Shown here piece after piece: positions 1,884 to 31,153 of a DNA stretch of 64,000 nt. Position numbers and translations under genes: made by a program. Numbering within the stretch: the stretch's first letter is position 1; every line of letters begins with the position of its first letter. The notes below the pieces were generated by a model. It had not been told where the DNA came from. It was given only the letters and a program-made list of their open reading frames with translations, and did not search any database. This stretch comes from Gautieria morchelliformis (taxonomy: Eukaryota > Basidiomycota > Agaricomycetes > Gomphales > Gomphaceae), in contig WHVA01000366.1 of NCBI GenBank assembly GCA_015179125.1, positions 54,051 to 118,050 of the forward strand, in the 5' to 3' direction.

Positions 1884-3129
1884 ATGCCCTTCCTTCATCG
1901 TCAACCATGCAAGTTTCTCTACCTCCTCTACTTCGCTACCAAAGTGATATTCGTGAAGCTTCCGTATTGGTCGCTGATCTCGATATCGCCTTCTTGGCGC
2001 CCATTTCCAAGCTGGGGGTTCAGGAAGTGTCTTGGGATCTACTTCTTGCGCCATGTGATCGACTCATTGACCAAACGGCAACTACACTCGAAACGAGACC
2101 TGACCTTGGAGGTACCAGATAGTAAACTGCGGAACGCAAAATTCGCTTGGATAGACGGCGTGGACGAAGAGAGTCTACAAGGGAAAGTTCGGGAGTATGC
2201 AAAGACCGCTGACGTTAAACCCACACGGGTCCCTGGCTACTGGCAATTCCGGGAAAGCTCGCCCGTGGATCGCTCGCCTCAGGCGAAGGATGGTGAAAAA
2301 ATTATATACCATATACATGGCGGGGCCTTCTTCGTAAGCATTGACATATTGACTGTTCCATCGACGTGCAAACCGTTGTCAGTTAGGCTCGGCACATCCT
2401 TCAGACCAAACGGCTCGGATTCCTCGTGACATACTGAAGCATTCTACCACGATTTCGCGCAGCTTCGCCGTTGACTACAGACTATGTGCACCGCCCTCTT
2501 TCCCAGCAGAGAATGCTTTCCCCTCTGCATTACTGGACTGTATTGCAGGGTATCAATATCTCATTAGCCTTGGATTTCTACCGGAAAATATTGTTGTAGT
2601 GGGAGATTCCGCCGGGGGTAATATTGCACTCGCGTTGACGCGGTACTTGATCGAAAATGCTGTCCCCAACTTAGGTCCCCCTGGCCGACTCTTACTTCTC
2701 TCATTATGGGGTGATCTTTCCGGCTCCCGCGTATCACCGACGTCATCTCACGTTGTGAACTTCGCCTCGGACATCTTCCCCAGAACACCACCGACAGCGT
2801 ACGGGGCAACGGCTTACTTCGGATCAGCTTTTGAGTGGGAGGAAATCAAATTAAACGAGTATATCTCACCCGCCTCCCCGCACTTGACACAAACGGAGGG
2901 CATGTTCAAGGCATTTCCGAGAACTTATATTTTGGCGGGAAGTTTAGAGAGACTTTTGGATGACTCAACGGTCATAGCAGAGAGGATGAAGATGGATAAT
3001 ATTTCGGATGGATGGGTTACACTGGACGTGGTAAAGGATGCGGTCCACGATTTCATTATTTTCTCGTGGGCTGAGCCAGAGAGGCGCGAGGCGCTGGTCA
3101 GAATTAGTAGGTGGCTCGATCAAGACTAG
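1884..3129 (+). CDS. Alpha/beta hydrolase (HSL/fold-3 type)
   Basis: Two exons, 1884-2333 and 2383-3129, joined across a 49-nt phase-0 GT-AG intron, give about 398 residues. The product fits the hormone-sensitive-lipase-like esterase branch of the alpha/beta hydrolase fold. The oxyanion-hole motif HGGAFF ends exon 1, VDYRL and the following (F)PAE block open exon 2, GDSAGGN holds the nucleophile serine, LAGSLERLLDD carries the likely acid, and VHDF carries the catalytic histidine. The N-terminus (residues 1-60) is hydrophobic and aromatic, as in many basidiomycete members. The ATG at 1884 is the first that keeps this N-terminus. The likely role is ester hydrolysis; the substrate cannot be told. 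No damage is visible. Reading straight through the intron hits a stop at 2427, which supports splicing. Confidence 0.85.
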
Positions 3130-3944
3130 ACGGACGTGGAGTAAATTCCTGGCGTCGAAGATAAGACGCTAGGAAGTATCTTACTAACTCACAACACGCA
3201 TATATGTCATGTTTCAGTCAAAAGGGGTCTGGTGCCCCTCCAGGCAAGCGCCGAAATACTCGACGCTCGCATTCTCACAATCACCGATTTCGATACAAGG
3301 CCGTGCGATATTGACTCTGCTACGTATTTCGAACTCTGAGCCTCGAACCATCACCGCCACCGTTGATCATTCAGAGGTTTTCACGATTGCTATGAAGTGC
3401 AGTGAGGGGAAGGAATGGCCATTCTTCAACCCGCACTGATTGCCAATGGAATTCAACGTCAACTAAAACCAAAGAGTGAGGACGAGCGCAGACCACCGGA
3501 GACACTCGTAGGGAAGAAGACTCAAGAATCATTTGGTCGACTCGCAGCTAAAAGCCGACTGCACAGCTGTACAGGCTGGTCGCTCTTAAATGATGTGCCA
3601 TACTTTGACTTGTGAACCTGGATCCCGCGCGAGCGCGCGACTCTGGCGAAGGGGAAGCAGCGCATAATAATACAGATGTCTAGTTGATGGATTTAATACT
3701 CGATACGTTCACATAGTGCATGCAACCTGTTCACAGATATGTGAACTTACGATCCAGTATCCACGAGTTTCACGAGCACAGCATGAACAGCGGGTTGAAT
3801 TAATTGGGTGGGAGCAAGGTTGTCAATTTATGCTCTATCCTTGAAAAAAATAAAATTGAAAAAAGCAAGGTTCAGGGTTGTTCAGAGTGTATTAACTATA
3901 CGTCGATGGACAGAATAAAGCAAATGTAAAAGACGAAAAACTCT
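3130..3944. other. Intergenic, no supported gene
   Basis: Two overlapping short frames (about 76 and 66 codons at 3209-3615) have no recognisable content. From about 3700 the sequence becomes AT-rich and leads into the tRNA 3' flank. Confidence 0.5.
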
Positions 3945-4029
3945 AGCCTCACGCGGGGGTCGAACCCGCAACCTTGAGATGCACTTGCTTTGTAAGAGTC
4001 TCACGCTCTACCGATTGAGCTAGCAAGGC
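3945..4029 (-). tRNA. tRNA-Lys (anticodon CTT) with 12-nt intron
   Basis: On the minus strand the acceptor strands GCCTTGC and GTGAGGC pair with two G-T wobbles. The D arm contains TAGCTCAATCGGTAGAGC, the anticodon stem is TGAGA/TCTCA with loop CTCTTA...A, and the T arm is GCGGG-TTCGACC-CCCGC. A 12-nt intron sits one base 3' of the anticodon, the normal nuclear tRNA position. The mature length is 73 nt with a U discriminator. The CTT anticodon and the U73 both match fungal tRNA-Lys(CUU). Confidence 0.95.
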
Positions 4030-5555
4030 ATGACGGCATTCTCTCGGAGTAGGCTGATGAATCTGTGTAACGTTGTGTTTCCGGAAAATTATGCCAAACC
4101 ACAGGATCATTGACAACGCAGAATATCATTAGCCGCCTGATTTGTTCCCTTGATCCTAGTGTTGTTAGCGCTACTACGTTACTCGGTAGATCGGAATGTA
4201 GAGCCCGTGGCAATTATTATTTGAATAATATTCCGTGGGCAATCTTCCCAGTGCTACTGTTTGGGGCCTTGCATAGTCTGCATTGGTGATTATCTTGATT
4301 CGGATGCCGATGATTACATGAGTGATTCAAGTGATGGCGAAGGGTTCCGGACCCCTTCCTAATTTGACAGCGAAGAACCCTTTTCGGGATTTGAGCTCCC
4401 GCTTACTACGCTCATTCTCCCCGATGTTGGCTGACACCTTGCAATGGTCTTCCACATCCATGATGGTTGCACAGACTGCATTGTGCAAAATTAAAACAAT
4501 GTCACCCAAAACACATGCAAAGTAGCACAGTTGCTATAAGAGAGGTTAGGTAATGTTGCATCCAGCATTCTAACCATTGTACATGTTTTTTCTGTGTTGT
4601 TGCTGATTAATTCTATGGCATACACGCAGGAAGTATCTCCCAGAGGATGTGGAAGGTCGCGTGGGGTTCAGACGTGCAGCGCTGCGGCGAACGTGCCGTT
4701 AATTCACCTCAAAACACCAGCTCGCCAATATGACATTGTAGGAGCTGTTCTTCCTCCTCTTCCAGGTCTGTGGGATAGAAGGGGGCGGAAGGGGCGGCAT
4801 GGTGAGCACTGTAACGGTCGAGGAATTATCCTCGGAGGATATGGACGGTGTGGCTAATGAGGTGGGGGAGGAGGAACAGGGTAGTGAGGCCGAGCCGGGA
4901 GCTCTGCTAACTACCGGCCTCTCGTCGGTGCACTGACATGGCCATACTATGGCTCCGTGGCTCGAGCTTGATCCCAGGGTATGGCCTTGTCGTCAAATGC
5001 TTCTTCCGCTCGACAATGTGTGTTTCGACCCTGGGCAGCGTTGCTTCGTTGCGCCTCGCGATACCACGAAGCTAGGACCACCCGCTTCAGGGCGACAAGG
5101 GTTTGGGAGAGCTGGAACATTTTTGTAAATGGTTAAAGGTTTGTGAACGCGGAAGATATAGTATACGAGAAAGAAGTACTTTGGAAAGCGCTTGGGCCGG
5201 GGGTCCTAGCTAGATAGAGGAAATCTTTATACCATTCTTTCCAACAGCGCTAACGAGGCTGTCTCGCAACACGTAGATTTTCCGAGACAGGCTCAGACAC
5301 GCTACAGTAGCTGTTTCGCGATTGTCGCAGTGCGAGTCGGGTGTGGTTGCCAGCCACAACGCAGTGCCAGCGCTCAGCCTCGTCCTCGCCAGGAGCTTCG
5401 GCCTGCAAGTACCATTGACAGGCTTTCAGACCGCGAGTACTGTATACACTTCGTTTGTGCGGTAAGTCAGACGACAAGCCCAAGCTCGCGTTAATCCAGC
5501 ACAGCGGGGATTCGTGAGTAGTATTTTACAACCATCACCTTTATAGCACTGCGCT
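4030..5555. other. Intergenic, no supported gene
   Basis: Several frames under 90 codons lie on both strands with no motif, no convincing splice signals and no repeat. I could not assign anything in this stretch. Confidence 0.45.
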
Positions 5556-5861
5556 ATGGGATCCAAGTCGCTAAATATTGCAACGTCAGACTCGGCACCA
5601 TTTCAATATATAGAAGATGCCAAACCTCGTGGGACCAGTTCCAGCAGCAAAATGGACAAGAAGGGATGCGCCATCACCCATAAGAAACCTCTTCCAGACC
5701 CTGCCGTGAATTATTCCAAGTGGCAGAAATCCATACGCCCACGCTGGAAGGAAAGGCGCGAGGTTCGACTGTGTGGCTCGACTACTCAGGTAGTCCCTTC
5801 CATGTTCCGAGGCGTCAAAGTGCGAGCTTTTCATTCTTGGGACATCGTACAATTCTCATGA
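5556..5861 (+). CDS. Hypothetical short ORF
   Basis: A 101-codon ATG-initiated frame, polar and basic, with a KKPLPDP stretch and an RPRWKERR stretch. No domain is recognised. Just downstream (about 5908-6005) another frame reads ITTLEDLFLHKESHF and breaks within about 30 codons, so this may be part of a decayed multi-exon gene upstream of the Hym1 fragment. It could also be a chance frame. Confidence 0.2.
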   Translation: MGSKSLNIATSDSAPFQYIEDAKPRGTSSSSKMDKKGCAITHKKPLPDPAVNYSKWQKSIRPRWKERREVRLCGSTTQVVPSMFRGVKVRAFHSWDIVQFS

Positions 5862-6090
5862 ACAGATCGACCGCACCCTCCCGCGGGGTCACCCATGCCT
5901 CAATCTGCATAAAATCACCACGTTGGAGGACCTGTTTCTTCACAAAGAATCACATTTTCTAAATATGGTGAACAACCCAATGTAGACGGGGTATATGAGC
6001 TCAAAGTAAGTCTCCTGGTTGTTGCTGAATGAATGCTTACCCGTGAACAACACAGGTCCCACTAGTCGTGCGAGCGTTGCTGAACCTCGA

Positions 6091-6982
6091 AACAGCATGT
6101 TCATGATTCTCAAAGAGATGCTGCGGCATGAATCGTTATGGAAGCTCTTGCTTTGTTCCGACCAGTACGTTCGGAGGCGGTGTGCATTCAATCGCTTACT
6201 TGGTGTTTAAATTTTACTCTTTCCCGCATTATATCGAGGAACGGACATTCGGGATCTCCTGCGATGCATTTGCCAACTATAAGGTTCTCACACGTTCTTT
6301 TTCTTGTGATTGTGAATAAGGTCGTATTCAGGAAACGCTGACTAGACATAAACCCATGGTAGCCGAATATCTGGAGAAAAACTATGATCGGGTAAAGTGT
6401 GGTGGCCACGTTTCACAGAATGTCGGCTTATGTTACCTTTGCAGTTTTCAATTCATACACTGCCCTCCTGTTATCTACGAACTACGTCACGAAACGGCAG
6501 TCGCTGAAGTTGCTCGGCGAAATTCTTCTAGATCGGGCTAACTTCAATGTCATGACGCGATACATCTCCAATGAAGGTACGTATCCGGAGGTTTGCGCTT
6601 GGGTTTCCTGAGGGCTGAAGCTGAACGTATGAAAGCGAATCTGAAGATGATGAATCTTCTTCGGGATAAGTCACGCAACATTCAGTCCGAGGTGTTTCAC
6701 GTTTTCAAGGTTTTTGTCGCCAACCCGAAGAAGCCACCACAAATCGAGTCGATCTTAAACAAAGACAAGCTATTGGCATGTCTGAAGGACTTTCATAATG
6801 ACAAGGAGGGTACGTCTGGTAGCTCTCGCTGTCCTTGATGCCTGGTGATAATGAGCAATGTTGAGCAGACGAGCAATTCAGCGTATGCATCATTTTTGTG
6901 TTTGTTCCTGCCCAAGCTGACGGAGCCATGTCGCATCCAGGATGAGAAGCAATTTCTGATTGTGCAGATACAAGGGTTGTAG
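6091..6982 (+). pseudogene. HYM1: Hym1/Mo25-like (CAB39) fragment, decayed
   Basis: Exons encode the C-terminal two thirds of an Mo25/Hym1 scaffold, the armadillo-like partner of Ste20/NDR-class kinases in cell polarity pathways. Diagnostic pieces are [94 protein letters not shown] and the exact family C-terminus DEKQFLIVQIQGL with its stop at 6980-6982. Introns with good GT-AG ends separate most exons. Damage: the intron opening at 6165 should end before 6211, but its acceptor reads AA (6209-6210) instead of AG. Single codons are missing in LK(L)MMN and in the ESIL(RR)NKDK block, and the N-terminal third is absent upstream. It is best read as a degenerating second copy; a functional HYM1 is expected elsewhere. 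Confidence 0.8.
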
Positions 6983-7201
6983 CCCAGCGGCAAACATACC
7001 CTCATTCTAGGGACTTGACTTGCATATGCTCACATGCACACCAGTGACACGCGCTGCTGCTTCGATGGCGTATCTCACAGTCGCATATACTCTTGCACGT
7101 CCTCTTGGTCACATTTGCTCTTTTCTGGACACCACCTGTTTCTTTCCTCCCGGCATGGTGGAATCTATTTCAGGATCCGTTATGACTGTCACCTGTTCAC
7201 G
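6983..7201. other. Spacer before MITE
   Basis: Nothing recognisable lies between the Hym1 stop and the left TA of the MITE. Confidence 0.5.
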
Positions 7202-7616
7202 TATGGTGCCGCTCACTTAGACACCGCTACTTTTGTGCAACCGCCAAATTGGCCCAACGAAAAATTTTCTGATAGTGAACCCCCTTTTGACTGAAATAGG
7301 GTGTATTTTTGATAGTATTTTGTTGCAAAAGCTGTAGAAATGCCTGTTATGCCATTTTAACATCTCGTCCTCTCGTTTGTTGCTTGCTTTGTCGGCGCTA
7401 TATATGGTAATTACATCCATATATGGAAGTGCCACCAAATTGACATGACAAAAAAAAATAACTCCCTCAGTTTTACAAATTAGATCAATCGCTCTGTATA
7501 ATCGATAGATCTAACCTAAATAAGCACTTTGTATAGAGGAATAAGAAAAATTGGATTTTTTTCACCTGGAATTGTGATTGCACAAAAGTAGCGGTGTCTA
7601 AGTGAGCGGCACCATA
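7202..7616. mobile_element. MITE with 37-bp perfect TIRs and TA duplication
   Basis: The terminal inverted repeats at 7204-7240 and 7578-7614 are perfect over 37 bp; the left begins TGGTGCCGCTCACTTAGACA. Both ends are bordered by TA (7202-7203 and 7615-7616), the duplication made by Tc1/mariner-type transposases. The 337-bp interior is AT-rich with no coding capacity. Perfect TIR identity suggests a recent insertion. It is non-autonomous; no matching transposase lies in the window. Confidence 0.93.
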
Positions 7617-7910
7617 GCAGCTGAGCGCAGCTGATCAGCTCACATGGGTGCTGAGCGCTGATCGATCGATCGATCCGTCGTTGGTCCAAGTTCGTTCTTA
7701 CAGAACATGGGCCTCTCTAGACCTTAGACCTCCACATCTATACATAGCGCAATAGATAAATTTTCTTGTCCATATGGTGCAGTATATATTCTTTTGAATG
7801 CTCGGCGGCCGACGGGGGCGCGAGCAAAATGTGTCACGCGCGATTGGCTCATCTGCAGATTGGGCTGGTCCGTGCACGTTGAGCGCTACTGGCCTGTTAA
7901 GCGATCTGCG

Positions 7911-7917
7911 TATAAAG
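7911..7917 (+). promoter_or_regulatory. Possible TATA box (TATAAAG)
   Basis: TATAAAG lies 77 bp upstream of the ATG at 7994, a plausible core-promoter spacing for the zinc-knuckle gene that follows. Position and sequence are the only evidence. Confidence 0.4.
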
Positions 7918-7993: not shown

Positions 7994-10483
7994 ATGTTGC
8001 TTTTACCTTTCGCCATGATTGGCGTCTACGCTATCGCGTTCATCGAATTTCTCCGCTCGCTCCCCATCGCCTCAGTGTTCAACCCTGAACACCCTGGCGC
8101 CGCGTATTACATCCACCCGGCTGCAGGCATCGCCCGCATCAACGGCAAATTCGTGCAGCTATCTACTTCCCAGGCCCCGGCGCATCTGTTTGAGCTCGGT
8201 CGCCCCATCATAACTAGCTTGGCCAACTCCGCTACCTTCAACACCACACCTGTCCTACCCCGACCCGGCACTGGAGCACCCGCCGCGGTTCAGATGGGCA
8301 TCATTCTATCGCTGTGCGCGGTGCTTGCCCTGAGGCTGGTCTCTAAGCGCGTTCTTACGAAGGGAACACTCGCGCTAGCCTCCAGCACATCTCACGTGGG
8401 CTTCTTTGGGGTATGTCGCCACGCTAATGCGAAAGGCAACTGATCTGAAGTCTCTCATAGAAGCCGCAAGGCGGCATGCCCTCATTGACGCCTGTCTCCT
8501 TTGCAGAATCATTCTACGCTGCGTGTGGCATGCCGACGAACGTCCATGTCATCGATCCGGAAAACACGCAGCCCGTCACGCCCAATGTCGAATGTGAGTA
8601 GGCATGTTAGAAGTCGAGGTTGAGCACGCACTGACGATGTGCAGTCGGCGGCGGCGGCCAAAGTCCGATCAGTGTGGTGCACCCCGCTGCGGCGGCCTGG
8701 GTGCACCAAGAATCATCGGCACAGTCATATGCCGCGCATGGCGTATCGATGGACGTCGTGGTCATCGATCGAAATTCCATGCAGCGCCGCGTGCTCAATG
8801 CTGAAGCAGCAGCAGTTGTGCAGGTGGGAAGCAGACTGGTGTTTGCGCAGGTTGAACGTGAGTAGGCCTATGGTCGAGTTTGGGCACGCACTGACGATGT
8901 GCAGTGTACGGCGGCGAGTTAACCGTCAAGGTGTTCATCGTGAAGAGGAGCAATCCTGCCCCTGGATCCTTCGCTGTGCAGTGCCCTGCATGCCAGCTTG
9001 CATCCGACAGGCAATATCACCCGGTCACTGTTCCATCGCAAGGATCTCTGGATCCTGCATCTTTGACACTTGGTCAAGCACTTCAGCGCCGCATCCTTCC
9101 TTCGTCCTCAAATTCAGGGCGACAACTTCCTCGGACTCAAGTTCTGTGTGTCCAGATTGGAAACCTGCGATTACTCGCGTTAAAGGTAACGGTCCACAAG
9201 TCTACCTGCGCAGATCTTGTGGATCTCACCCTCCTGAATGATCAGACGGTGGACTTCCTGTTTGATGGGCCACGTCCTCCGGCCGTACTCGCGTCCGAGA
9301 TCTGCCTAGGCCCGATTCGCCCCCAGCATATCGCCGTCACCATGGCCTCACGAGACGCCCGACCATATCCCCCAGTATCTGATAGGCCCTCCGATCCAAT
9401 TTCGGACGAGTCTTTAGGTGTATGTCCTCGTGAATTTGGTATTGAGGACCAGGTGTGTTGGCATTCCATTGTTTACTCGCGTATTGATGACGGTCCTTGA
9501 AGAGTATCCTGGGTCCGGAGCCTGCCACCACAGACGATTCGGCTCCGTCCAACTCGACGGTCTTGCAATCGGCTTCGGACCTGCCTGTCACCCCACCCCT
9601 TGGGAGGTAAGAATTAGGTGATTTTGTTGTATGCGGAGGGCTAATGGTTTATTAGCGAGTTGCCGACTGAGCAGCGTGACTTACTGGTCCCTACAGATTC
9701 AGGGGAGAATGTCGGGCAAAGGTAAGAATCTCTGCAATGGCGAACTATCACAGTTCACCGAATGTATCGTAGGCCTCAGGAGCCTTCCGACCCAGCCGTT
9801 GCCGCTCACTCGCCGTGTGAGCAATCGGTTTCGGACACCCCACCAGTTATGCCCGGCAGGTAAGACTTTGGTGATTTCATTGATGTCGATAGCTAATCGT
9901 TTATTAGCGACTCGCCGCCTGAGGAGGGTGACTCACCGGTCGTTCCACATGCAGGACAGGGAGAAACGTAAGAATCTCTGCAATGGGCAAATATGGCAGC
10001 TAATTATATCGTAGGCTTGGGGAGATTCCATCCGTTGACACTAGCTCAAGCAGCGCCATGGCCCCCGATACGACGGCCTTGGTGAACTCGCACACGTCCG
10101 TCGATGCTCCTGGGACCGACACCGGCATCGCATCTGGGGACCCTGCAGGCCTTCGCGCCGAGCCTAGTTCGGGGGCAGGGACTTCGGCCTCCACCTCTAC
10201 GGAGTCTGGGTTACCATCCAAGGAAGAGGCTGACCAGCTAGTCGAGGCGTGGGAGACAATCTTCGGGCAGAGGCTCGGTGGAAGAGGCAGACAACCTGGC
10301 GGTTCTAACACCGGGAATACAGCCAGACAACCTGGCGGCTCTAACACCGGGAATACAGGCAGACAACCTAGCGGCTCTAACACCGGGAATACAGGCAGAG
10401 TTTGCTGGCGATGCAGTCGAAGTGGCCATACGCAAGCAGCTTGCAGGAACAACCACAACCCCAGGTCCCGACGCGGCGCCTGA
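7994..10483 (+). CDS. Unrecognised nine-exon gene with duplicated exons and CCHC zinc knuckle
   Basis: The exons read 7994-8410, 8461-8593, 8645-8857, 8905-9419, 9503-9606, 9656-9721, 9773-9859, 9908-9967 and 10015-10483. All phases agree and give about 687 residues. The N-terminus is hydrophobic (MLLLPFAMIGVYAIAF, then a second segment near residue 100), so membrane insertion or a signal anchor is possible. The centre repeats a unit opening with V-x-V-I-D and ending VE(F/L). The C-terminal half is acidic and Pro/Ser-rich, then carries three 12-residue repeats (RQPGGSNTGNT-A/G, 36 bp each, 10289-10396) and ends with a CX2CX4HX4C zinc knuckle (CWRCSRSGHTQAAC). Introns at 8594-8644 and 8858-8904 are near-copies, as are 9607-9655 with 9860-9907 and 9722-9772 with 9968-10014, so exon-intron units were duplicated in tandem. 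I recognise no family. The zinc knuckle suggests nucleic-acid binding, or descent from a retroelement Gag. Confidence 0.7.
10289..10396 (+). repeat. 36-bp tandem repeat, 3 copies, coding
   Basis: Three in-frame copies start at 10289, 10325 and 10361 and encode RQPGGSNTGNT plus Ala or Gly. They sit just before the zinc knuckle of the host gene. Confidence 0.9.
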
Positions 10484-10640: not shown

Positions 10641-10946
10641 GGGCTGGGGGAGAAAGAAAAGAAGTAACGAAGGAGGGGGGGTTGCGGCTGTTGATGGAGG
10701 GAAGTTGCGACGGGCTGGGGGAGAAAGAAAAGAAGTAACGAAGGAGGGGGGTTGCGGCTGTTGATGGAGGGAAGTTGCGACGGGCTGGGGGAGAAAGAAA
10801 AGAAATAACGAAGGAGGGGGGTTGCGGCTGTTGATGGAGGGAAGTTGCGACGGGCTGGGGGAGAAAGAAAAGAAATAACGAAGGAGGGGGTTGCGGCTGT
10901 TGATGGAGGGAAGTTGCGGCTGTTGATGGAGGGGCGTTGCGGCTGT
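10641..10946. repeat. Minisatellite, about 70-bp unit, four-plus copies
   Basis: The unit begins GGCTGGGGGAGAAAGAAAAG and recurs at 10642, 10713, 10783 and 10853 (spacing 71, 70, 70), with partial copies to 10946. It is strongly purine-rich on the plus strand and starts about 160 bp past the stop of the zinc-knuckle gene. Confidence 0.93.
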
Positions 10947-11139
10947 TGATTTTAACCTTTTTTTTTTATTTTTCTTTATTTACCCCCCGTTCCCTTCTTA
11001 TGTTTGCCTCCCTTCGCCTCTCCTCCCCTTGCCGGATCGCCCTGGCCGATCGGACACGGGCAACATCACCGTCTAGGCGCTCTTTCACCGCGCCCGGACC
11101 CCGTTTTACAGGAGCCGTGCCCTCTCCCCTTTCGAACGT

Positions 11140-11840
11140 TCAGACGAGGCTTGGGGTATCAGGCTGTTGATGCAGTCACCGGTTTGTGTCGCGCCCACCA
11201 CCATCACCGCTTGGGATGAGGTGAGTCCACATTTTGATTTACCCTGTAGTCATTTCTAATTTATTCTTGTAGCGGTTGATGCGGTTACCGGTTGTATCAG
11301 GCCCATCACCACGCCCACCACCAATCGACCACTAACCCCCACCAGCACACGCTTGTCCCATTGGCAATTATTGTGGTAAGCTTCCACATTTTTGATTGGT
11401 TGCCATTTACTGACATGGGGCCTTTCCACTCCGGGCGGCCATTGTGGCTCGGGGGACACCCCCGAGCCACAGTGGGCGCATAGGATCACCCGAGCCACAG
11501 TAGCGACATAGGACCCCCGGACGACCTAGGAATGGATACGCGGGTGATCGGCCTTGGACCACCGGATGACCTGGGAACGGGCACACACGTAGTCGGCGTG
11601 GCCTCGTAAGTTCTTCTCAGTGTTTTCATACACTACTGACCCTTTACGCTGTAGTGTGGGCTGCAGCTCCCGCTCGATATCCTGGGCTTCTATGAGCTTC
11701 GAACTGGGAATGGGGTACGGCCGCGATCGCCGGGCTCTATCTGGGTAAGTTCCTCGGTCATTTCCTACATATACGACTATTACTGACCCCTTACGCAGTA
11801 GCCCCGGGGACCCGGAGAGGCCCTCCCTTTAGGAGGAGGC
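11140..11840 (+). other. Block of duplicated exon-like and intron-like segments
   Basis: GTTGATGC(A/G)GTCACCGGTT-like segments at 11163 and 11275 are each followed by CCCACCACC-rich sequence and a GT-initiated, TAG-terminated intron-like stretch. Two further intron-like pieces are near-copies of each other: 11606-11654 and 11755-11803, both with CTACTGACC(C)...TTACGC(T/A)GTAG ends. I could not thread one long frame through it. It may be a decayed or incompletely read relative, or a 3' extension, of the zinc-knuckle gene. Confidence 0.4.
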
Positions 11841-13911
11841 ACATTATGCTTCATGAGCGCTGCGCTCTTTGTTTGTTTTTTGTGTTGCGTTTTTTCCCAC
11901 TTTGCCCCCCGCCATGCTCCCACACCACAGCATTTTACATTTAATTGATTGTAAAATCATTTTATTAGAGAATATAATCGAATCATTAGAAAAGAATCGG
12001 GTCGGGGATCAGCCTGAGAAGATGATCCCCAGGTAGCATCGACTTGTCGCAGGTGGTACGAAATCGGAGGACATCGCGTCCGCTGCGCGAGACAGTCTGA
12101 GAGACTGGGGGAGACCCGTGCCTGAACACACAATATCCCTTGATCGGACGGTCAGAAATTTTTAAAAAGGGACACCTAACGCCGCCGGGCGAAGACGGCC
12201 AGCCTGCAGCAAATGGTACCCCTGTAAAAGACGATCGTGAAATGGGAGATATCGAGCGGTTATGATAGTAACTTGGTGGCACTTACACGTCATCATATAT
12301 AGCAAGGTTGCGGTACTTAGCCCGAGGGCTTGATGCTCACTACACAGGCAGGACTTAGACTGCTTAAAAACTTGATTTTGGCCGGCCAACCTATACGTGA
12401 GCGCAGACACGCTTAATCCACAAAATCGCGTACCTTGTATAGCCATGAACTCTTGATGCGTCGATATACAGCCTCCGCTCTCAAAAAAATCCAGAGCTTA
12501 GCGCGATTTCGGCGTACCTCGGTCATACGCAGCAACGATAAATATTTTAGTACTCCCTTTCCTTGCTGCTAAAAAATATGGTAAAACCTTTTTCCCATCC
12601 CAATTCCTGACTAAAAAACCATCTACAAGTTATCCTGCAAACGCAGACTACAGACTGCCGAGTACTACCGGTCCAATTATCCTCCCTAATAGTCCTACAG
12701 CTAGCTTGGAGAAGTAGCAACACAGAGCAGGTTGCCTGAGCCAGACAGAGCCGCTGTGCCAGACAGGCAGAAGCGTCGAGCAAGACCAGCTTCAGAGCGG
12801 GACCAGCAGAGCGAGACCAGCATAGCAAGACCAGCGTCAAACTGAGACCAGTGTCAGATAGTGCAGCCAGGACCAGCTTGAAAGCCGCAGGTTTCATACA
12901 GAGAGGCCCGCATTGGCGGATGGATGGGCCATGGGTGAAGGGGAAGGACAAGAGACGACGCGAGTTCTGCGTCGGACTCGGGCATTGAAATGTTCTTTGT
13001 CAGCTAAGTATGCTTGGATTGTTTGGCAAGGTTGACTAAGCAGAGTTTGCGGGCAGTTTGCGAGCGTGGTTGTGTTTTATTGAAAAGCAGCGGGCGATAT
13101 ATTGCAGACCGAAGGCTTGCCCATAGGTTGCAAGCAGAGGGTGCATTTAACACAAGCAGAAAAACTTCAAATTTATGGAGAGATTATTGCGGCCTAAGCG
13201 CAGTCTAGTCACTACCTGAAGGGCAAGCCGCAGGAGGGTGCCAAACAGGCAAACAAACCTCTGGCTGTGTAGACTCACCGATAGGACCTTGTGCGACCCA
13301 GTTTTATGTCGACTGACTTGGACCATCCAATGTATATACTCAGTGCACGCGCCTAGATCAACGATTTCTTACTCACGTGGGATGACGGATCAACGTGTTA
13401 CGTAACACTATCTCTTGTGTTCGTACATTCACCTTGTCCTGGCAGCCTTTTGCTGACTGAAATTGACCACAGCTCGGGCATGTACTGTCGCCAGTGAGGT
13501 TTTACTGAGGCACAGTCTTTTGCTAGTTGCAAATTACACATCCGAACCCGTCTCTTTCTTTCGAGATTGAGCAATTTTTGGAACACTACTATTCATGCTT
13601 GGGCATGTCGGATAAAGGAGAATAGAGCATCGATAGAAAGGTTTTACCACTTTAGCTATTGACGTGGAATTTGACGAATGTGTTGTTCTCGAGAAGGGAA
13701 CCGGTGACTGATTTCATTGTCCGCACAAAGGAAGGCGACAAATGTGACCGTCCGATTAAAATCCTACATAAAGACCTGTGTCTCTCTTGTACTCTCAAAC
13801 CGCCATCCTTGCCATTACTGCTACACCATGGAAAATCAGCTCCCCTTTTTGCACAGCCTTGGCTTACTCCACCGGGAGCCCATGACTTTGGAGGAGGATC
13901 GTCGGTTGTTT
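11841..13911. other. Sparse region, no supported gene
   Basis: Frames of 60-134 codons on both strands have no recognisable content. An imperfect GACCAG/AGCAAGACCAGC repeat runs from about 12780 to 12885. Nothing else stands out. Confidence 0.45.
12780..12885. repeat. Degenerate GACCAGC tandem repeat
   Basis: About eight loose copies of AGACCAGC(G/A) occur at irregular 9-19 bp spacing, for example GCAAGACCAGCTTCAGAGCG and GCGAGACCAGCATAGCAAGA. The frame is open on the minus strand but shows no known domain. Confidence 0.55.
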
Positions 13912-26048: not shown

Positions 26049-29000
26049 ATGGCGACATTCTCTGGCGCTGCTGTTGATCCAGAGAACATGGATCCATTAG
26101 CCCTCCAGCCGTCATTGCCCAGCATGCCTGCCAATGGAGACTTGCGCATTCAACTACAAGCTCTGTTAGATGACAAGGAGAAGCAGCTCAGCCTCGTCGG
26201 CACCCTTGGCCAGCGTTTTCTTGCCCAGCAAATGGAACTCGAGGAGCGTATCAGTCAGCTGAACGACCTTGAGGCTGCAAAGACCAGCGCGACAGATGAC
26301 CAGGCTCTGGAGACTGAAATCAGGGATAAACTCGGCGAACTTAAACACACGATGAATTCATGGGAATCTGAAAACCAGGATATGTTTGGTGTCCTGGGGA
26401 ACAAGGTGCGTTGTTGTCCGATTACCCGAGTTCTAAAATGACACCGACGAAAAGGTTAATGGCGTCCCACCATCTCCCACAGCAACGTCCCTCCCTTCAT
26501 TTGATGTTGAAGATACCTCCGCAGTACATTCCCCTACCTCTGGTCCTTCCGCCGCCCAATCGTCACGTCGCGCAAAGAACGCGGCCCATCGTGCCAATGA
26601 CGTCGGTAGGTGTATAAATCATGCGACTTGTGTATTCACTGTGAATGATGCCGCTGGCAGAATTTGCTTTCGAGATTGGTAGCAGTTTGCTAACCGAAGT
26701 TCGACGACTGCAGAGTTTGCTCGCTGAGCGAGACAAGGCGATCCGGGACATGAAAGAAGAAAAGGACGATCTTAAAAAACTTGTTGAGGACCTTACTACG
26801 GGCCTGCAGACTCAAGCCGCCAGTGCAGGTCTGTGTATGTCAGTCTGACAACGAAAACGCATTGACTTTGCACATAGAAAAATACAAGGAAGAAAACTGG
26901 AATCTTGAAGTCACGCTGCAAGAACTACGTACACAACTACAGGATGCGCAGACTGCTGGTCAAAACTCCGAGGCTGAGCGCAAGCGTGCCGCGAAGCAGC
27001 TTCTAGCAGCCAGAGATTCCATTGACCAGCATAAAAACGAGGCAGAACGTCTAACCTCTAAACTTGACGAGTTTAAAGCAAAACACGAAACAGACGTCGC
27101 TCAAATGCGCAAACAGGCCGCTGGTTTGCAACGTGACAAGTCGGACCTTCAGTCCACCCTCGAGGCGCTCAAGTCTGATATTGCAAAGAAAGATCGTTCA
27201 ATCAAACGCTTCGCTAGTCCGCTCACGCCTAACGGACTCTCCCCGTACACCCCAGCGCAGGGCGATGGCGAAGAGGAAGAGGATGTATTTGGAACTACGG
27301 GTGGCGCGTCTCGCCGGAAGCTTGACGCATCCGCCATGTTCGGCCAAGACGGCCTTGGCTCTGATTATGCCGACTCGAGTCCGGATCCCAGTCCCTCTCG
27401 ACCTCACCTAGCGCCCAATCATCCCAGCAATGAGATCGAGGCGCTCAAGCAAAGTCTCGCACACGCTCACCGACAGGTCAGTATGCTCCGTGGTACCGTG
27501 CAACGGGAGAAGGAGTTGCGCATGGACTATAGACGCAAGCTTGCAGAAGCAGAGGGCAGAACCGAGGAGTTGGTAGACGAAGAAGAAGAGGAGAACATTG
27601 ATCCTACCAAGGCTCGCTCACGGACAGCACGAGGTCATGGACGAGGTGCGGTGCGCCATGGGAGAGGCACTCGATCCGCACTTTCTCAAAAACTGGCCAT
27701 GGTTCCCGGGACGCCAGATTCAGAGTTCCTCGACAGTATTGATGAGATGGAGGTGCCGGATGTCGCTTCTGAGCCCACGCTTCAACTGGAGCAATATGGC
27801 GAAGAGGACGACGAACAAGCACTTGTTGACAATGACGACGATGGTATCTCGCAAGCTCGCGATCGCAGAATCAGTGCAGACGGCATGGATCCCGCCTTTG
27901 CCAACGTCCTGCGCAGCTCGCCATCCTCCGCGGTTCCATTGCACGCTTCTAGTCCCTTACGTGAGATGACGAGCGTCGCCACTCGCGGCGGCCGTAGATC
28001 AAGAGGCGGCGTGCCCCATCTAGCCGAACAACGTCCGTCGTCACTCGTCGAGCCAGCGGGGGCCCTTGCTGCGGAACTTGGTATGACGGAGGAAGTGCTG
28101 GGTCCCGAATTTACGCTTAGCCGACATGTTGAGACTGCTGAGGTTGCATGTCAGACAGAGCCAGAGCCAGAGCCAGAGCCAGAGCCCCAAGCCGAAGCAG
28201 CTCCCGCACCTCTTCCTAATCATGACTTACCACCAGTCGAAACTTGCGAGATGGCCGTTCAGGTAGAGGAGGTACTTCCACAGGTCGCCACCTCCGAAGC
28301 TGGGTCGCAAGCGATGCCGTCGTACGTGGACGCTGCAACAGACGCTTCAACCGCAATGACAAGCGATGTGCATGTTCAAACTATGCCCGCGCCGCGTACG
28401 GTTGAGATGGACACGCAGACCAGTCCACTTATTATCCCCGCTCCGCGTACCGTCGAGATGGACACGCAGACCAGTCCACTTACTATCCTCGCTCCGCGTA
28501 CCGTCGAGATGGACACGCAAACCAGTCCACTTATTATTCCCGCTCCGCGTACCGTTGAGATGGACACGCAAACCAGTCCACTTAAGTCAAAAGACCGTGA
28601 GTCGATTATCTCCCTGAACCTTGGAGGTATTACGCGCCGTGGGACAATCGTCGCTGTCGCGCCGGGAGAACGTCTGACCGCAACGGATGATGAGGGAGAA
28701 GCCACGGAAACTGACACCGGAACTGAGACGGAGGGCGAGTACACAGATGCGCGAGAATTCCCTACTGCAACCACGCCCATAACGGGCTCCATAGCCGACT
28801 TTTACTCCACGCGATCTGGCCCTCAGGACTCTACTGCCGACTTTCATTCCGTGCAGACTGGTCCACAAGAGTCTACTAGTGACTTTTACTCTGTGCGGTC
28901 TGGACGCGCCGATTCGGATGCAGACGACAGTGACCAGGAGAGTATCAAGGCTTCGAGGCTGCATCGGACTCGAACCTCGAGTCGGACGACTGGTGTTGAC

Positions 29001-31153
29001 ATTGCCTTAGGGTATGCCCATTACCAGTCGGGCGTGCATCCACCACCGTCCCCTCCTCCCCGGGTTATGTCCGAGGAAGCAGTGCAAGTCGAAGTGAAGA
29101 TGCCTGAGCTCAAAGAGACGTCAATTCAGACCGACGATTGGACGCCACCACCACCTCCTCCACCGGTTCCACCGGAGCCGCCTGCACCTTATTCCTTGTT
29201 CCGTGTCGGTGCTTACCCCCAGCAGTTCCAGTATATTGCGCCTCCCACGTCTACTCCTTCGACCCCTTCGGGGTCTTCCCCTCAAGCCAATTCCTCTCAT
29301 GATTCAACCTCGACGGTCACTACTAGTCCACGCCGAGCTGGCACGACATCTCTTGTCACACGGGAGCATCTTCAGAGGGCTTCAGTTGAAACTGCACTTG
29401 CTGGAGATGACGCTGTGCGTACACGAACACTGAGTTCACAGACTATGTTGGCGCCTTTGGACAAAACCCGTCCGCCCACGATGATGCTACCCCCTCCTCC
29501 ACGTATGCCTCCGCCACCCACAATACCCGATAAGAAAACATCATCCGGAAGCATGGCCCCCCCGCGCGATATACCTCCTCCTCGTCCCACCTCTCCACCC
29601 CCACCAGAGCTTATCCAACGAGCCACTACGCCCACGTTTGGGGGCTCCGGTCTACTCGTTCCCTTTCGAGGCCAAGTTCGACAACATGGCGCAAGCATGC
29701 CTCCCTCTCAGCAAGGTCTTGGCCGGCGGCCATCTACCAATAGTTTCCGCTCAGCAGCCAACGCGGCGGTGTATGCAAGTGTTTCGGGAGCTACTGGAAT
29801 ATCCCCCATCGAGGCCGCCCGGCGACAGCAATCGACGGCTTCTCTCGTCTCTAGCCGACAGTCCAGCTTGGCCTCCCGGCGGTCATCTGTGTCTTCTGAG
29901 CATCACCAGGTCCGTCCACCCCAGAATCCTGCTGTACCAGCTCCGCCTACACCGGGGCGCACCTTGCAAGGCCCCGACGGAGGGACAACAGATCCCGCTA
30001 TCATCCATGCTATCACGCAGACTATGATTGGCGAATTCCTTTACAAGTACACAAGGCGTGTTGTGGGCAAAGGTCATGGCGAGAAGAGACACAGGCGATT
30101 TTTCTGGGTTCATCCTTACACAAAAACACTATACTGGAGTTCTGCTGATCCAGGATCTTCGGCCGTCAGTGAATCCAGCGCCAAGAGCGGTGAGACCCAG
30201 CGACGTTTATCCCTTATACTCAGTATTGATCGTCACACGTAGCCTACATCGATTCAGTGCGGTCTGTGCTAGACCCAAATCCAATGCCACCAGGGCTTCA
30301 CCAGTATAGCGTGGTTGTGTCAACCCCACAACGGGAGATGAAGATCACGGCACCTACTAAAGAGAGACACGACATATGGCTCAATGTGAGTATCGGTCCT
30401 TAATGGCTGCGACACTTGTTGATCTCTGCGTGGTAGGCTCTAAACTATCTTTTAGCTCGTCCGAGTACTGGTCTCGCACACTCACCTCAAACCATTAGAT
30501 CAAATGTCAACCAGGCAGTTAGTCCTGCTTATGGCTCTATGAGACTTCCGGCCGATGAAGGCGTCCACAGAGACGTTCTAGCAAGTCCCCGAAGTGCTAG
30601 GAGCATTGGCTCCGCTTTATCAGGTGATTCGTGGAATATAACACCCCGTGCGCAGCGCAGTCAGTCACGGCTGTCAACGAACGGTTCTATTGGCAAGCGG
30701 TCTGGTACACCTGCTGCTGAGTATCTACGATTGGGAGGTCCTGACAGCCACCACACAAGTCCTGGTAAATCCGACTACGAGTATGTTCCAGGTCGTAACG
30801 ATGACGATGATTTGGACTTCGAGATACACGATAGTATCGCAAATGGTGAAGGATATGAAGGCTTAGAGAATGTTCGAGCTTGCTGCGATGGACGGCATGA
30901 CCTGGGCACTTTGTCTCGCAAACCACACCACCATCATCACCATCGTCACCCGCCGCATCCCGCTGGCTTATCTCAAAATCAGAGCGTGGAGCCGAATGAG
31001 CCCGCATCCCGTCCAGTGTCTCCGTCGGCGTGGTCTTTCCGCTCACGAGCTGGAAGCACGACTTCCCATGGCGGAGATAGCATTTGGTCCCGATTCGGCT
31101 CGAAGCGTTCTAAAGGCGCGCCACCCGTTCCAGCTTCGCCTGGCGAACGATAG
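26049..31153 (+). CDS. NUM1: Num1/Mcp5-type cortical anchor, coiled coil plus PH domain
   Basis: Six exons (26049-26405, 26455-26605, 26661-26828, 26878-30189, 30243-30385, 30437-31153) give about 1615 residues. Residues 30-120 and 170-350 are coiled coil. The long acidic, Pro/Ser-rich middle holds four 17-residue repeats (APRTVEMDTQTSPLI). Near residues 1265-1390 lies the family's C-terminal PH domain: IGEFLYKYTRRVVGKGHGEK, HRRFFWVHPYTKTLYWSS, VLDPNPMPPGLHQYSVVVST and ERHDIWLNALNYLLARPS. In yeasts this PH domain binds PI(4,5)P2 at the plasma membrane and the N-terminus captures dynein or mitochondria. A His-rich run and a basic Ser-rich tail follow. The ATG at 26049 opens the coiled-coil frame. 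Intron 3 (26829-26877) contains an open frame but is needed for phase. Confidence 0.9.
28384..28587 (+). repeat. 51-bp tandem repeat, 4 copies, coding
   Basis: Four in-frame copies encode (P/L)APRTVEMDTQTSPL(I/T)I inside the Num1-type protein. The copies differ mainly at third positions, so they are not very recent. Confidence 0.93.

What the first reader, a model, noticed from the sequence alone, without database searches (positions are those of the whole stretch)
7994..10483. Unknown zinc-knuckle gene assembled from duplicated exon-intron units
Three pairs of introns are near-copies: 8594-8644 with 8858-8904 (both end GCACGCACTGACGATGTGCAG-like), 9607-9655 with 9860-9907 (both end TTTATTAG), and 9722-9772 with 9968-10014 (both start GTAAGAATCTCTGCAATGG). 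Flanking exons match in phase, so whole exon-intron units were copied and the reading frame was kept. The protein has an N-terminal hydrophobic part, three 12-residue repeats and a C-terminal CCHC knuckle. I know no family with this make-up; the knuckle could mark a domesticated Gag.
Basis: partly seen in the sequence, partly recalled or inferred. Interest (0 to 1): 0.75.

Follow-up and report, generated by a model that had tools for sequence, protein, structure and literature searches.

The report
Chimeric gene built from two genes
A fungal gene with copied introns turns out to be stitched together largely from pieces of a motor-protein gene (kinesin-3) and a flavin oxidase gene, and it belongs to a scattered family of such mosaics; a domesticated Gag origin is not supported.

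Summary
The spliced 698-aa product hits Pfam DUF3694, the kinesin-3 tail domain (4.4e-8). Introns 4, A and B and most of exons 4-8 come from the kinesin-3 gene on contig C325. Introns 1, 2a and 2b and short coding pieces come from an AA7/berberine-bridge FAD oxidase; the best match for the intron-bearing pieces is a gene about 30 kb away on the same contig and strand. Against five parental introns, 8 of 8 focal introns match best as expected. Kinesin-3 pieces were found on 15 further contigs; 18 of 18 matches reaching intron B stop beside its 3' end, which suggests one founder. A second member (L020) has an intact 975-codon frame. Between the two, 17 of 21 exon gaps are multiples of 3, yet dN/dS is about 0.9. 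Exons diverge from kinesin more than intron cores in 11 of 11 loci, the reverse of ordinary oxidase paralogs. Best reading: a young, fast-changing chimeric gene family, like Drosophila Sdic in kind. Function and expression are untested.

The parts
7911..7916 (+). TATA-like box (TATAAA), 83 nt before the ATG
   Evidence: position checked; GCGTATAAAGGGCGC also stands upstream of paralogs L020 and L018; promoter function inferred
7994..8410 (+). exon 1 (139 aa): two hydrophobic segments, about aa 1-29 and 93-122; its 5' part is shared with another hydrophobic-protein family (C264, C926, C639); its last ~20 codons resemble the AA7 oxidase
8411..8460 (+). intron 1, from an AA7 oxidase
   Evidence: 0.62 identity to the AA7 intron of L032, next best 0.48
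8461..8593 (+). exon 2, AA7-derived, first copy of unit I
   Evidence: homology weak at protein level, no Pfam hit
8594..8644 (+). intron 2a, copy 1 of the AA7 last intron
   Evidence: 0.80 to AA7 intron 2
8645..8857 (+). exon 3, AA7-derived (BBE-type motif then a piece of the FAD-binding domain), second copy of unit I
   Evidence: below Pfam detection on its own
8858..8904 (+). intron 2b, copy 2 of the AA7 last intron
   Evidence: 0.81 to AA7 intron 2
8905..9452 (+). exon 4: first codons AA7-like, then from about 8987 kinesin-3 (DUF3694 part and the segment before the PH domain)
   Evidence: PF12473 aa 291-376, 4.4e-8; DNA 80% to kinesin-3 over 8987-9285
9453..9502 (+). intron 4, kinesin-3 intron
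   Evidence: 0.88
9503..9606 (+). exon 5, kinesin-3 linker before PH, unit II copy 1
9607..9655 (+). intron A, copy 1 (kinesin-3)
   Evidence: 0.86
9656..9721 (+). exon 6, start of the kinesin-3 PH domain, unit II copy 1
   Evidence: DNA homology; no Pfam PH hit in focal exons 5-8
9722..9772 (+). intron B, copy 1 (kinesin-3)
   Evidence: 0.80
9773..9859 (+). exon 7, unit II copy 2 of exon 5
   Evidence: 54 of 87 identical
9860..9907 (+). intron A, copy 2 (kinesin-3)
   Evidence: 0.84
9908..9967 (+). exon 8, unit II copy 2 of exon 6
   Evidence: 42 of 60 identical
9968..10014 (+). intron B, copy 2 (kinesin-3)
   Evidence: 0.78
10015..10483 (+). exon 9: stretch read as an AA7 BBE-motif remnant (SSSSAMAPDTTALVNSHTS), low-complexity tail, three 12-aa repeats (10285-10399), CCHC knuckle (from 10403), stop
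   Evidence: zf-CCHC 16.1 bits, below cut-off; the BBE reading rests on L009 and L016 tails, which match AA7 DNA at 88-91% over 51-55 nt
10950..12216 (+). 3' flank; parts of it match other loci of this family at 70-91%; intron-like stretches

Best explanation
The region is one member of a family of chimeric, intron-containing genes in this genome. SHOWN: it holds pieces and introns of a kinesin-3 gene (parent on contig C325) and of an AA7 FAD/berberine-bridge oxidase gene (for the intron-bearing pieces the best of the AA7 genes compared is also on C325, same strand, about 30 kb away); copies whose kinesin part stops at the same place beside intron B lie on ten other contigs. INFERRED: a founder joined AA7 pieces, a kinesin-3 3' part cut just after intron B, and an AA7 BBE-type tail, by short-homology or template-switch joining. 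Genomic DNA was copied, so the introns came along, and copying whole intron-bounded units kept the phase (two such duplications here). Members spread by segmental and ectopic duplication, not by one identifiable element. The focal gene and L020 are translated. The focal product would be anchored by two N-terminal hydrophobic segments, with a P/S/T/G/A-rich body carrying part of DUF3694 and a C-terminal CCHC. No motor, complete PH or complete FAD domain was found, so it should act neither as kinesin nor as oxidase. Selection appears to keep the frame open while residues change almost freely, as in young or conflict-driven proteins.
For: DUF3694 4.4e-8 in the focal product and 9.4e-16 in L020. 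Kinesin parent: KIF1B 1e-10, full DUF3694 7.3e-52, PH 1.1e-13 on the spliced tail. AA7 type: FAD_binding_4 2.2e-10 and BBE 8e-11 in the C1048 paralog, FAD_binding_4 2.5e-6 in the L010 chimera. The BBE/last-intron piece is closest to the C325 AA7 in 8 of 8 queries that matched it. 8 of 8 introns assigned. Fragments on 15 other contigs; 18 of 18 matches reaching intron B end at query 4482-4494, intron end 4486. Coding: L020 intact 975 codons with homologous introns; five of five exon length differences multiples of 3; 17 of 21 exon gaps multiples of 3 against 2/7, 1/3 and 3/8 in flanks; chance of no stop in a neutral frame at 10-14% change 0.024-0.001 (focal) and 0.009-0.0007 (L020), but 0.14 and 0.07 at 5%; intron ends of the focal gene changed less than cores, 1/27 against 22/123.
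Against: No transcript data. dN/dS FOC-L020 0.89 (95% 0.70-1.16; 0.76 on a protein-guided alignment that includes the tail), not different from 1; codon positions diverge about equally from kinesin. Of the other promoter- or exon-1-bearing members looked at, several are broken: stops in L018, L024 and L028, no open frame under the simple model in L011 and L012. Intron ends are not better kept than cores in L009, L016 and L028. The CCHC is inside an intact frame only in the focal gene. The FAD piece is mixed: C325 AA7 is closer in L010 and L014, the C1048 copies in the focal gene, L013, L015 and L024. The 5' part of exon 1 and the knuckle have no identified parent.
Confidence: 0.57

Rival explanations
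1. Non-functional mosaic repeats: gene-fragment debris that multiplied as DNA; the open frames of two members are survivors.
For: dN/dS about 1 in nearly all pairs; flat codon-position divergence; broken members; L014 is a tandem mosaic with no product that I could read; L020's knuckle lies behind its stop.
Against: Two intact frames (698 and 975 codons) that differ by dS about 0.35 with mostly in-frame gaps; the stop simulation at 10-14% change; splice ends changed less than intron cores in the focal gene, L020 and L018.
Confidence: 0.33
2. A gene-capturing transposon (Helitron or Pack-type) carries the fragments.
For: Intron-bearing fragments of two host genes on many contigs is what such elements do; Helitrons with captured genes are reported in Pleurotus (PMC4289320, abstract and passages seen); L010 and L014 share a left edge beginning TC.
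Against: No shared ends among the eight locus pairs whose edges were compared; no CTRR end with hairpin seen by eye at the printed edges; L011, L012 and L020 lie in long shared flanks. RepHel proteins were not searched for.
Confidence: 0.15
3. A domesticated Gag, marked by the CCHC knuckle.
For: CX2CX3-4HX4C near the 3' end of four family loci; zf-CCHC above cut-off in L028 (2e-4).
Against: Body explained by kinesin-3 and AA7 sequence and introns; the only Pfam hit of the product is DUF3694; in L020 and L028 the motif is not in the intact gene frame.
Confidence: 0.03
4. A kinesin-3 decoy: the truncated tail competes for kinesin-3 cargo or partners at membranes.
For: Part of DUF3694 kept in frame in the focal gene and L020 behind an exon with two hydrophobic segments.
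Against: DUF3694 matched only to position 87 of 149 (84 in L020), no PH domain found, residues of this part change as freely as the rest.
Confidence: 0.1

Closest known systems
Sdic of Drosophila melanogaster (AnnX-Cdic chimera; PMC3395120, passages seen)
   Same: A motor-protein-related gene and a neighbouring gene fused by duplication and deletion; both parents still intact; the chimera then multiplied.
   Different: Sdic is a four-copy tandem cluster between its parents with coding sequence from Cdic alone; here members are scattered over many contigs, carry coding pieces of both parents in varied assortments, and contain internal exon-intron tandem duplications.
Kinesin-3 (KIF1/Unc-104 type; this naming is recalled, the domains are)
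   Same: DUF3694 part, PH-start exons and three introns derive from it.
   Different: No motor match, DUF3694 only to position 87 of 149, no PH match; residues nearly unconstrained.
AA7 / berberine-bridge FAD-linked oxidase (AA7 label recalled; Pfam FAD_binding_4 and BBE)
   Same: Introns 1, 2a, 2b and short FAD-domain and BBE-motif pieces derive from it.
   Different: No FAD-binding or BBE match in the focal exons; pieces in a different order and repeated.
Helitron-captured genes of Pleurotus ostreatus (PMC4289320, abstract and passages)
   Same: Mobile gene fragments in a fungus, some expressed.
   Different: No Helitron ends found here; [quoted passage not shown]
Exon-segment exchange in viperid three-finger protein genes (PMC2474615; search listing and start of abstract only)
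   Same: Accelerated change in the coding region of a multigene family.
   Different: Single-gene family there; two-parent mosaic here; dN/dS not shown above 1 here.

Membership tests
Kinesin-3 | motor domain | tested here: not met
   No PF00225 match in the focal product; none of the 33 genome matches (36 candidates scored) lies on C411
Kinesin-3 | DUF3694 | tested here: inconclusive
   Above cut-off but only positions 1-87 of 149
Kinesin-3 | PH domain | tested here: not met
   No Pfam hit in exons 5-8; the copies stop after intron B
AA7/berberine-bridge oxidase | FAD_binding_4 and BBE domains | tested here: not met
   No match in the typed piece of focal exons 2-3 or the whole product; short similarity only
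Domesticated Gag | capsid-type domain | tested here: not met
   Only DUF3694 found by Pfam up to E 10; sequence test only, fold not predicted
Domesticated Gag | CCHC knuckle | tested here: inconclusive
   16.1 bits, cut-off 20.8; motif near the 3' end of 4 family loci, in an intact frame only in the focal gene; L028 above cut-off
Helitron | shared 5'-TC and 3'-hairpin-CTRR ends | tested here: not met
   Edges of homology differ between the eight locus pairs compared; read by eye, no structural search
Helitron | RepHel protein in an autonomous partner | not tested
   No search made
Two-parent chimeric gene family (Sdic-like) | both parent genes present in the genome | tested here: met
   Kinesin-3 on C325; AA7 genes on C325 and C1048. 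Completeness of the parents was not proven
Two-parent chimeric gene family (Sdic-like) | parental introns inherited | tested here: met
   8 of 8, against five candidate introns
Two-parent chimeric gene family (Sdic-like) | expression and function | not testable with these tools
   no RNA data

The most novel reading that the evidence does not exclude
The family is a running mosaic repertoire: new members keep being assembled from pieces of the same two genes (kinesin pieces at 70% to 95% identity would mean repeated capture), frames are kept while exon sequence is diversified faster than introns, so the genome maintains a hypervariable set of membrane-anchored proteins, perhaps for self/non-self recognition or genetic conflict.
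Probability: 0.15. Interest if true: 0.82.

Novelty: new variant of a known kind. Interest (0 to 1): 0.55.

Why it matters
It offers exon shuffling that can be traced: every intron of the new gene matches an intron of one of two parent genes still in the genome, so the joining order, the frame rules and later selection can be read directly. The reversal in which exons diverge more than introns is testable with sister strains and RNA data. It also warns that a CCHC motif in an orphan fungal gene is weak evidence for a domesticated Gag.

Tried and rejected
Gag origin: not supported. Three independent duplications: two suffice. Positive selection: only 2 of the pair/exon sets tested have a bootstrap interval above 1 (L018-kinesin 1.93, 1.04-4.96; L028-L020 exons 4-5 2.31, 1.04-10.97); the rest include or touch 1 (L009-kinesin 0.32-1.00), so not claimed. 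CpG decay as the reason for fast exons: the non-CpG exon rates are close to the overall ones in most loci (L010, L013 and L014 shift most), so not the main cause. Element ends: none found. Chance open frame: argued against by simulation only, and not at 5% change. Structure prediction was not run, because a spliced product is not read letter for letter from the DNA. Papers: eight searches; no listed title or abstract start concerns a kinesin/AA7 chimera, but four of the lists were capped (61: 15 of 79; 65: 15 of 373; 77: 10 of 13,994; 78: 10 of 19) and the library is open-access only. The organism was not identified; 'fungus' rests on Pfam families Mcp5_PH and Say1_Mug180 in the window (that these are fungal is recalled) and on the intron style.

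The AA7 parent on C325 holds for the intron-bearing pieces, not clearly for the FAD piece.

Output limits: searches were cut; searches failed (empty file; missed pattern) and were redone. In one search the L020 tail was cut early (892 aa, also used for hydropathy); the full frame of 975 codons is. In one search, 12 of 13 alignment rows show introns more conserved than exons; the exception (L018, 8433-8486) has three exon sites. Own-genome searches return best candidates only, so counts are lower bounds. One search scanned 18 sequences (focal region, 16 loci, the kinesin gene) and found eight plus-strand CCHC-type matches in seven of them; I set aside L010, L015 (two) and L024 as lying outside the gene bodies; the minus-strand control gave one, in L021.

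Full report
WHAT IS THERE. The window is C411:54051-118050 of a 122-Mb genome in 1113 contigs, fungal by gene content (inference). The finding is a nine-exon gene model, 7994-10483, with eight GT-AG introns of 47-51 nt and an open frame of 698 codons. The A and B pairs lie 253 and 246 bp apart and belong to one tandem duplication (exon 5-A-exon 6-B, then exon 7-A-exon 8-B). The other pair is a second, separate duplication.

WHERE THE PIECES COME FROM: KINESIN-3. The product's only Pfam match up to E 10 is DUF3694, aa 291-376, E 4.4e-8, over the cut-off. A genome search with this family finds six places. Two cover the whole profile: C325:63317-63763 (179.8 bits, in a 687-aa open frame) and C226:168767-169210 (104.3 bits, with two stops). 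The C325 locus carries KIF1B, DUF3694 and, after splicing, a PH domain, with motor-domain matches just upstream. Its introns downstream of DUF3694 are the focal introns 4, A and B. The focal exons 5-8 correspond to the linker and the first PH exon, copied twice.

WHERE THE PIECES COME FROM: THE OXIDASE. Relatives of exons 2-3 read as FAD-binding and BBE pieces. Pfam confirms FAD_binding_4 and BBE in the C1048 copy and FAD_binding_4 in the L010 chimera; the focal exons 2-3 themselves give no Pfam hit. Five AA7 loci were compared by DNA. For the piece with the last intron and BBE motif the C325 gene (L032, C325 about 95.1-97.0 kb) is the best match in 8 of 8 queries that matched it: focal 76 and 82%, L020 80 and 86%, L016 tail 91%. 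Around intron 1 it is also best. For the FAD piece the picture is mixed: C325 is closer in L010 and L014, the C1048 copies in the focal gene, L013, L015 and L024. Tested against five parental introns, each of the 8 focal introns best matches the expected one: intron 1, 0.62; 2a/2b, 0.80/0.81; 4, 0.88; A, 0.86/0.84; B, 0.80/0.78; off-target at most 0.52. The 5' part of exon 1 has relatives in another family with hydrophobic segments (C264, C926, C639; 40-46% aa), without Pfam match. The knuckle's source is unknown.

THE FAMILY. With kinesin-3 as DNA query there are 63 matches: the parent and fragments on 15 other contigs, 66-97% identical. Left ends and internal make-up differ: L013 carries the stretch from the end of the motor onward at 95%, L014 tandem mosaics, L010 and L015 further AA7/kinesin assortments. 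All 18 matches that reach intron B end at query 4482-4494 (intron end 4486), on C411 and ten other contigs. That they share one founder breakpoint is my inference. After it, several copies have 11 nt that also occur in the kinesin last exon, and then an AA7 BBE-type motif (read). Edges of homology differ between the eight locus pairs compared, and L011, L012 and L020 lie in long shared flanks at 93-98%. This fits segmental and ectopic copying better than one transposon.

IS IT A GENE? For: L020 splices at homologous introns to 975 codons. Exon length differences between it and the focal gene are 30, 63, 6, 180 and 6. 17 of 21 exon gaps are multiples of 3, against 2 of 7, 1 of 3 and 3 of 8 in flanks. 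In a simple simulation a neutral frame would hold at least one stop with 97.6-99.9% probability at 10-14% change, but only 86-93% at 5%. Against: dN/dS 0.89 (0.70-1.16) between the two intact members (0.76), equal change at all codon positions, broken members, no RNA. The CCHC does not help: four loci carry it near the 3' end, but only the focal gene has it in an intact frame, and in L020 it lies 193 nt behind the stop. Splice ends changed less than intron cores in the focal gene (1/27 against 22/123), L020 and L018, but not in L009, L016 and L028.

EXONS FASTER THAN INTRONS. Against kinesin, exon divergence exceeds intron-core divergence in 11 of 11 loci (focal 0.223 against 0.179; L020 0.155 against 0.111; L009 0.061 against 0.049; L014 0.128 against 0.122). 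Differences are small in several loci and no significance test was made. Between focal and L020 the introns are 87-92% identical, while exons 1-4 show dS 0.37-0.64 and dN 0.27-0.39 (on stricter columns dS 0.31-0.44, dN 0.23-0.40 over exons 1-5). The control is the ordinary AA7 genes, C325 against two C1048 copies: exons 74-75%, two introns 36-57%, the normal direction. Fast protein change, constraint on introns, or conversion among copies could each do this. I do not claim positive selection.

HOW IT MOST LIKELY WORKS. Origin (shown: parent sequences, introns, common stop beside intron B; inferred: joining by short homology or template switch, spread by segmental copying). Copying whole intron-bounded units keeps phase, which is why the frame survived two duplications. 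Product (inferred): anchored by hydrophobic segments about aa 1-29 and 93-122, then a P/S/T/G/A-rich body (54% from aa 431) with part of DUF3694 and, in the focal gene, a terminal knuckle; neither a motor nor an oxidase. Compared with what is known, it is nearest to Sdic (PMC3395120, passages) but dispersed, built from both parents' coding parts and varied in make-up.

VERDICT. Observation confirmed; the Gag reading is not supported; a new variant of a known kind (chimeric gene family). Chimeric origin from kinesin-3 and AA7 about 0.9 likely; origin plus protein-coding function about 0.57.

Noticed in passing
L018 (C173:212000-221500), 2880-5721: Several near-perfect short hairpins (the five longest of seven: arms 19-48 nt, 88-100% complementary, loops 1-13 nt) stand where paralogs have ordinary sequence. 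A scan of 18 sequences for perfect arms of 20 or more with loops up to 20 finds 4 in L018, 2 in L024, 0 in the 64-kb window. Fold-back template switching is one possible cause; assembly error another.
   Followed up: partly
L011 4196-4378 and 4389-4571: Inverted repeat, 183-nt arms, 93% complementary, inside a family member.
   Followed up: no
window 7202-7618: A 417-bp repeat with 39-nt terminal inverted repeats; about 15 other near-complete copies among the matches listed, nine of them 94-96% identical: MITE-like.
   Followed up: partly
window 12067-12155: A 90-bp dispersed repeat on many contigs.
   Followed up: no
window 5852-7157: A 1.3-kb repeat (mostly 90-95%) found near family members, several times on C173; sometimes upstream, sometimes downstream of the gene.
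   Followed up: partly
C208:81230-82006, C40, C79, C675: AA7 oxidase copies in which query 116-489 is followed directly by 592 on: 102 bases missing at the same place in several copies. Possibly a second family of altered AA7 genes.
   Followed up: no
L039, L040, L041 (C264, C926, C639): A multi-copy gene family with hydrophobic segments and inner repeats (YADILFEKIVLPYADI) that shares the start of exon 1; no Pfam match in the pieces scanned.
   Followed up: partly
window 10950-12216: The 3' flank shared with family loci holds several intron-like stretches (GTAAGT...CTGAC...TAG); the transcript may run further than the stop at 10483.
   Followed up: no
window 10641-10918: 70-bp tandem repeat, 4 copies at 98%, just after the gene.
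   Followed up: no
window 26754-30239: Open frame with a Mcp5-type PH domain (2.3e-22) and 51-bp tandem repeats at 28382-28584.
   Followed up: no
L013 (C707) 4021-4789: Kinesin-3 fragment (end of the motor onward) at 95% identity, closer to the parent than the other pieces: perhaps a recent capture.
   Followed up: partly
L020 (oriented) 6064-6572: Behind the stop of the 975-codon frame a second open stretch carries the CCHC motif; a missed intron or a second tail copy.
   Followed up: partly
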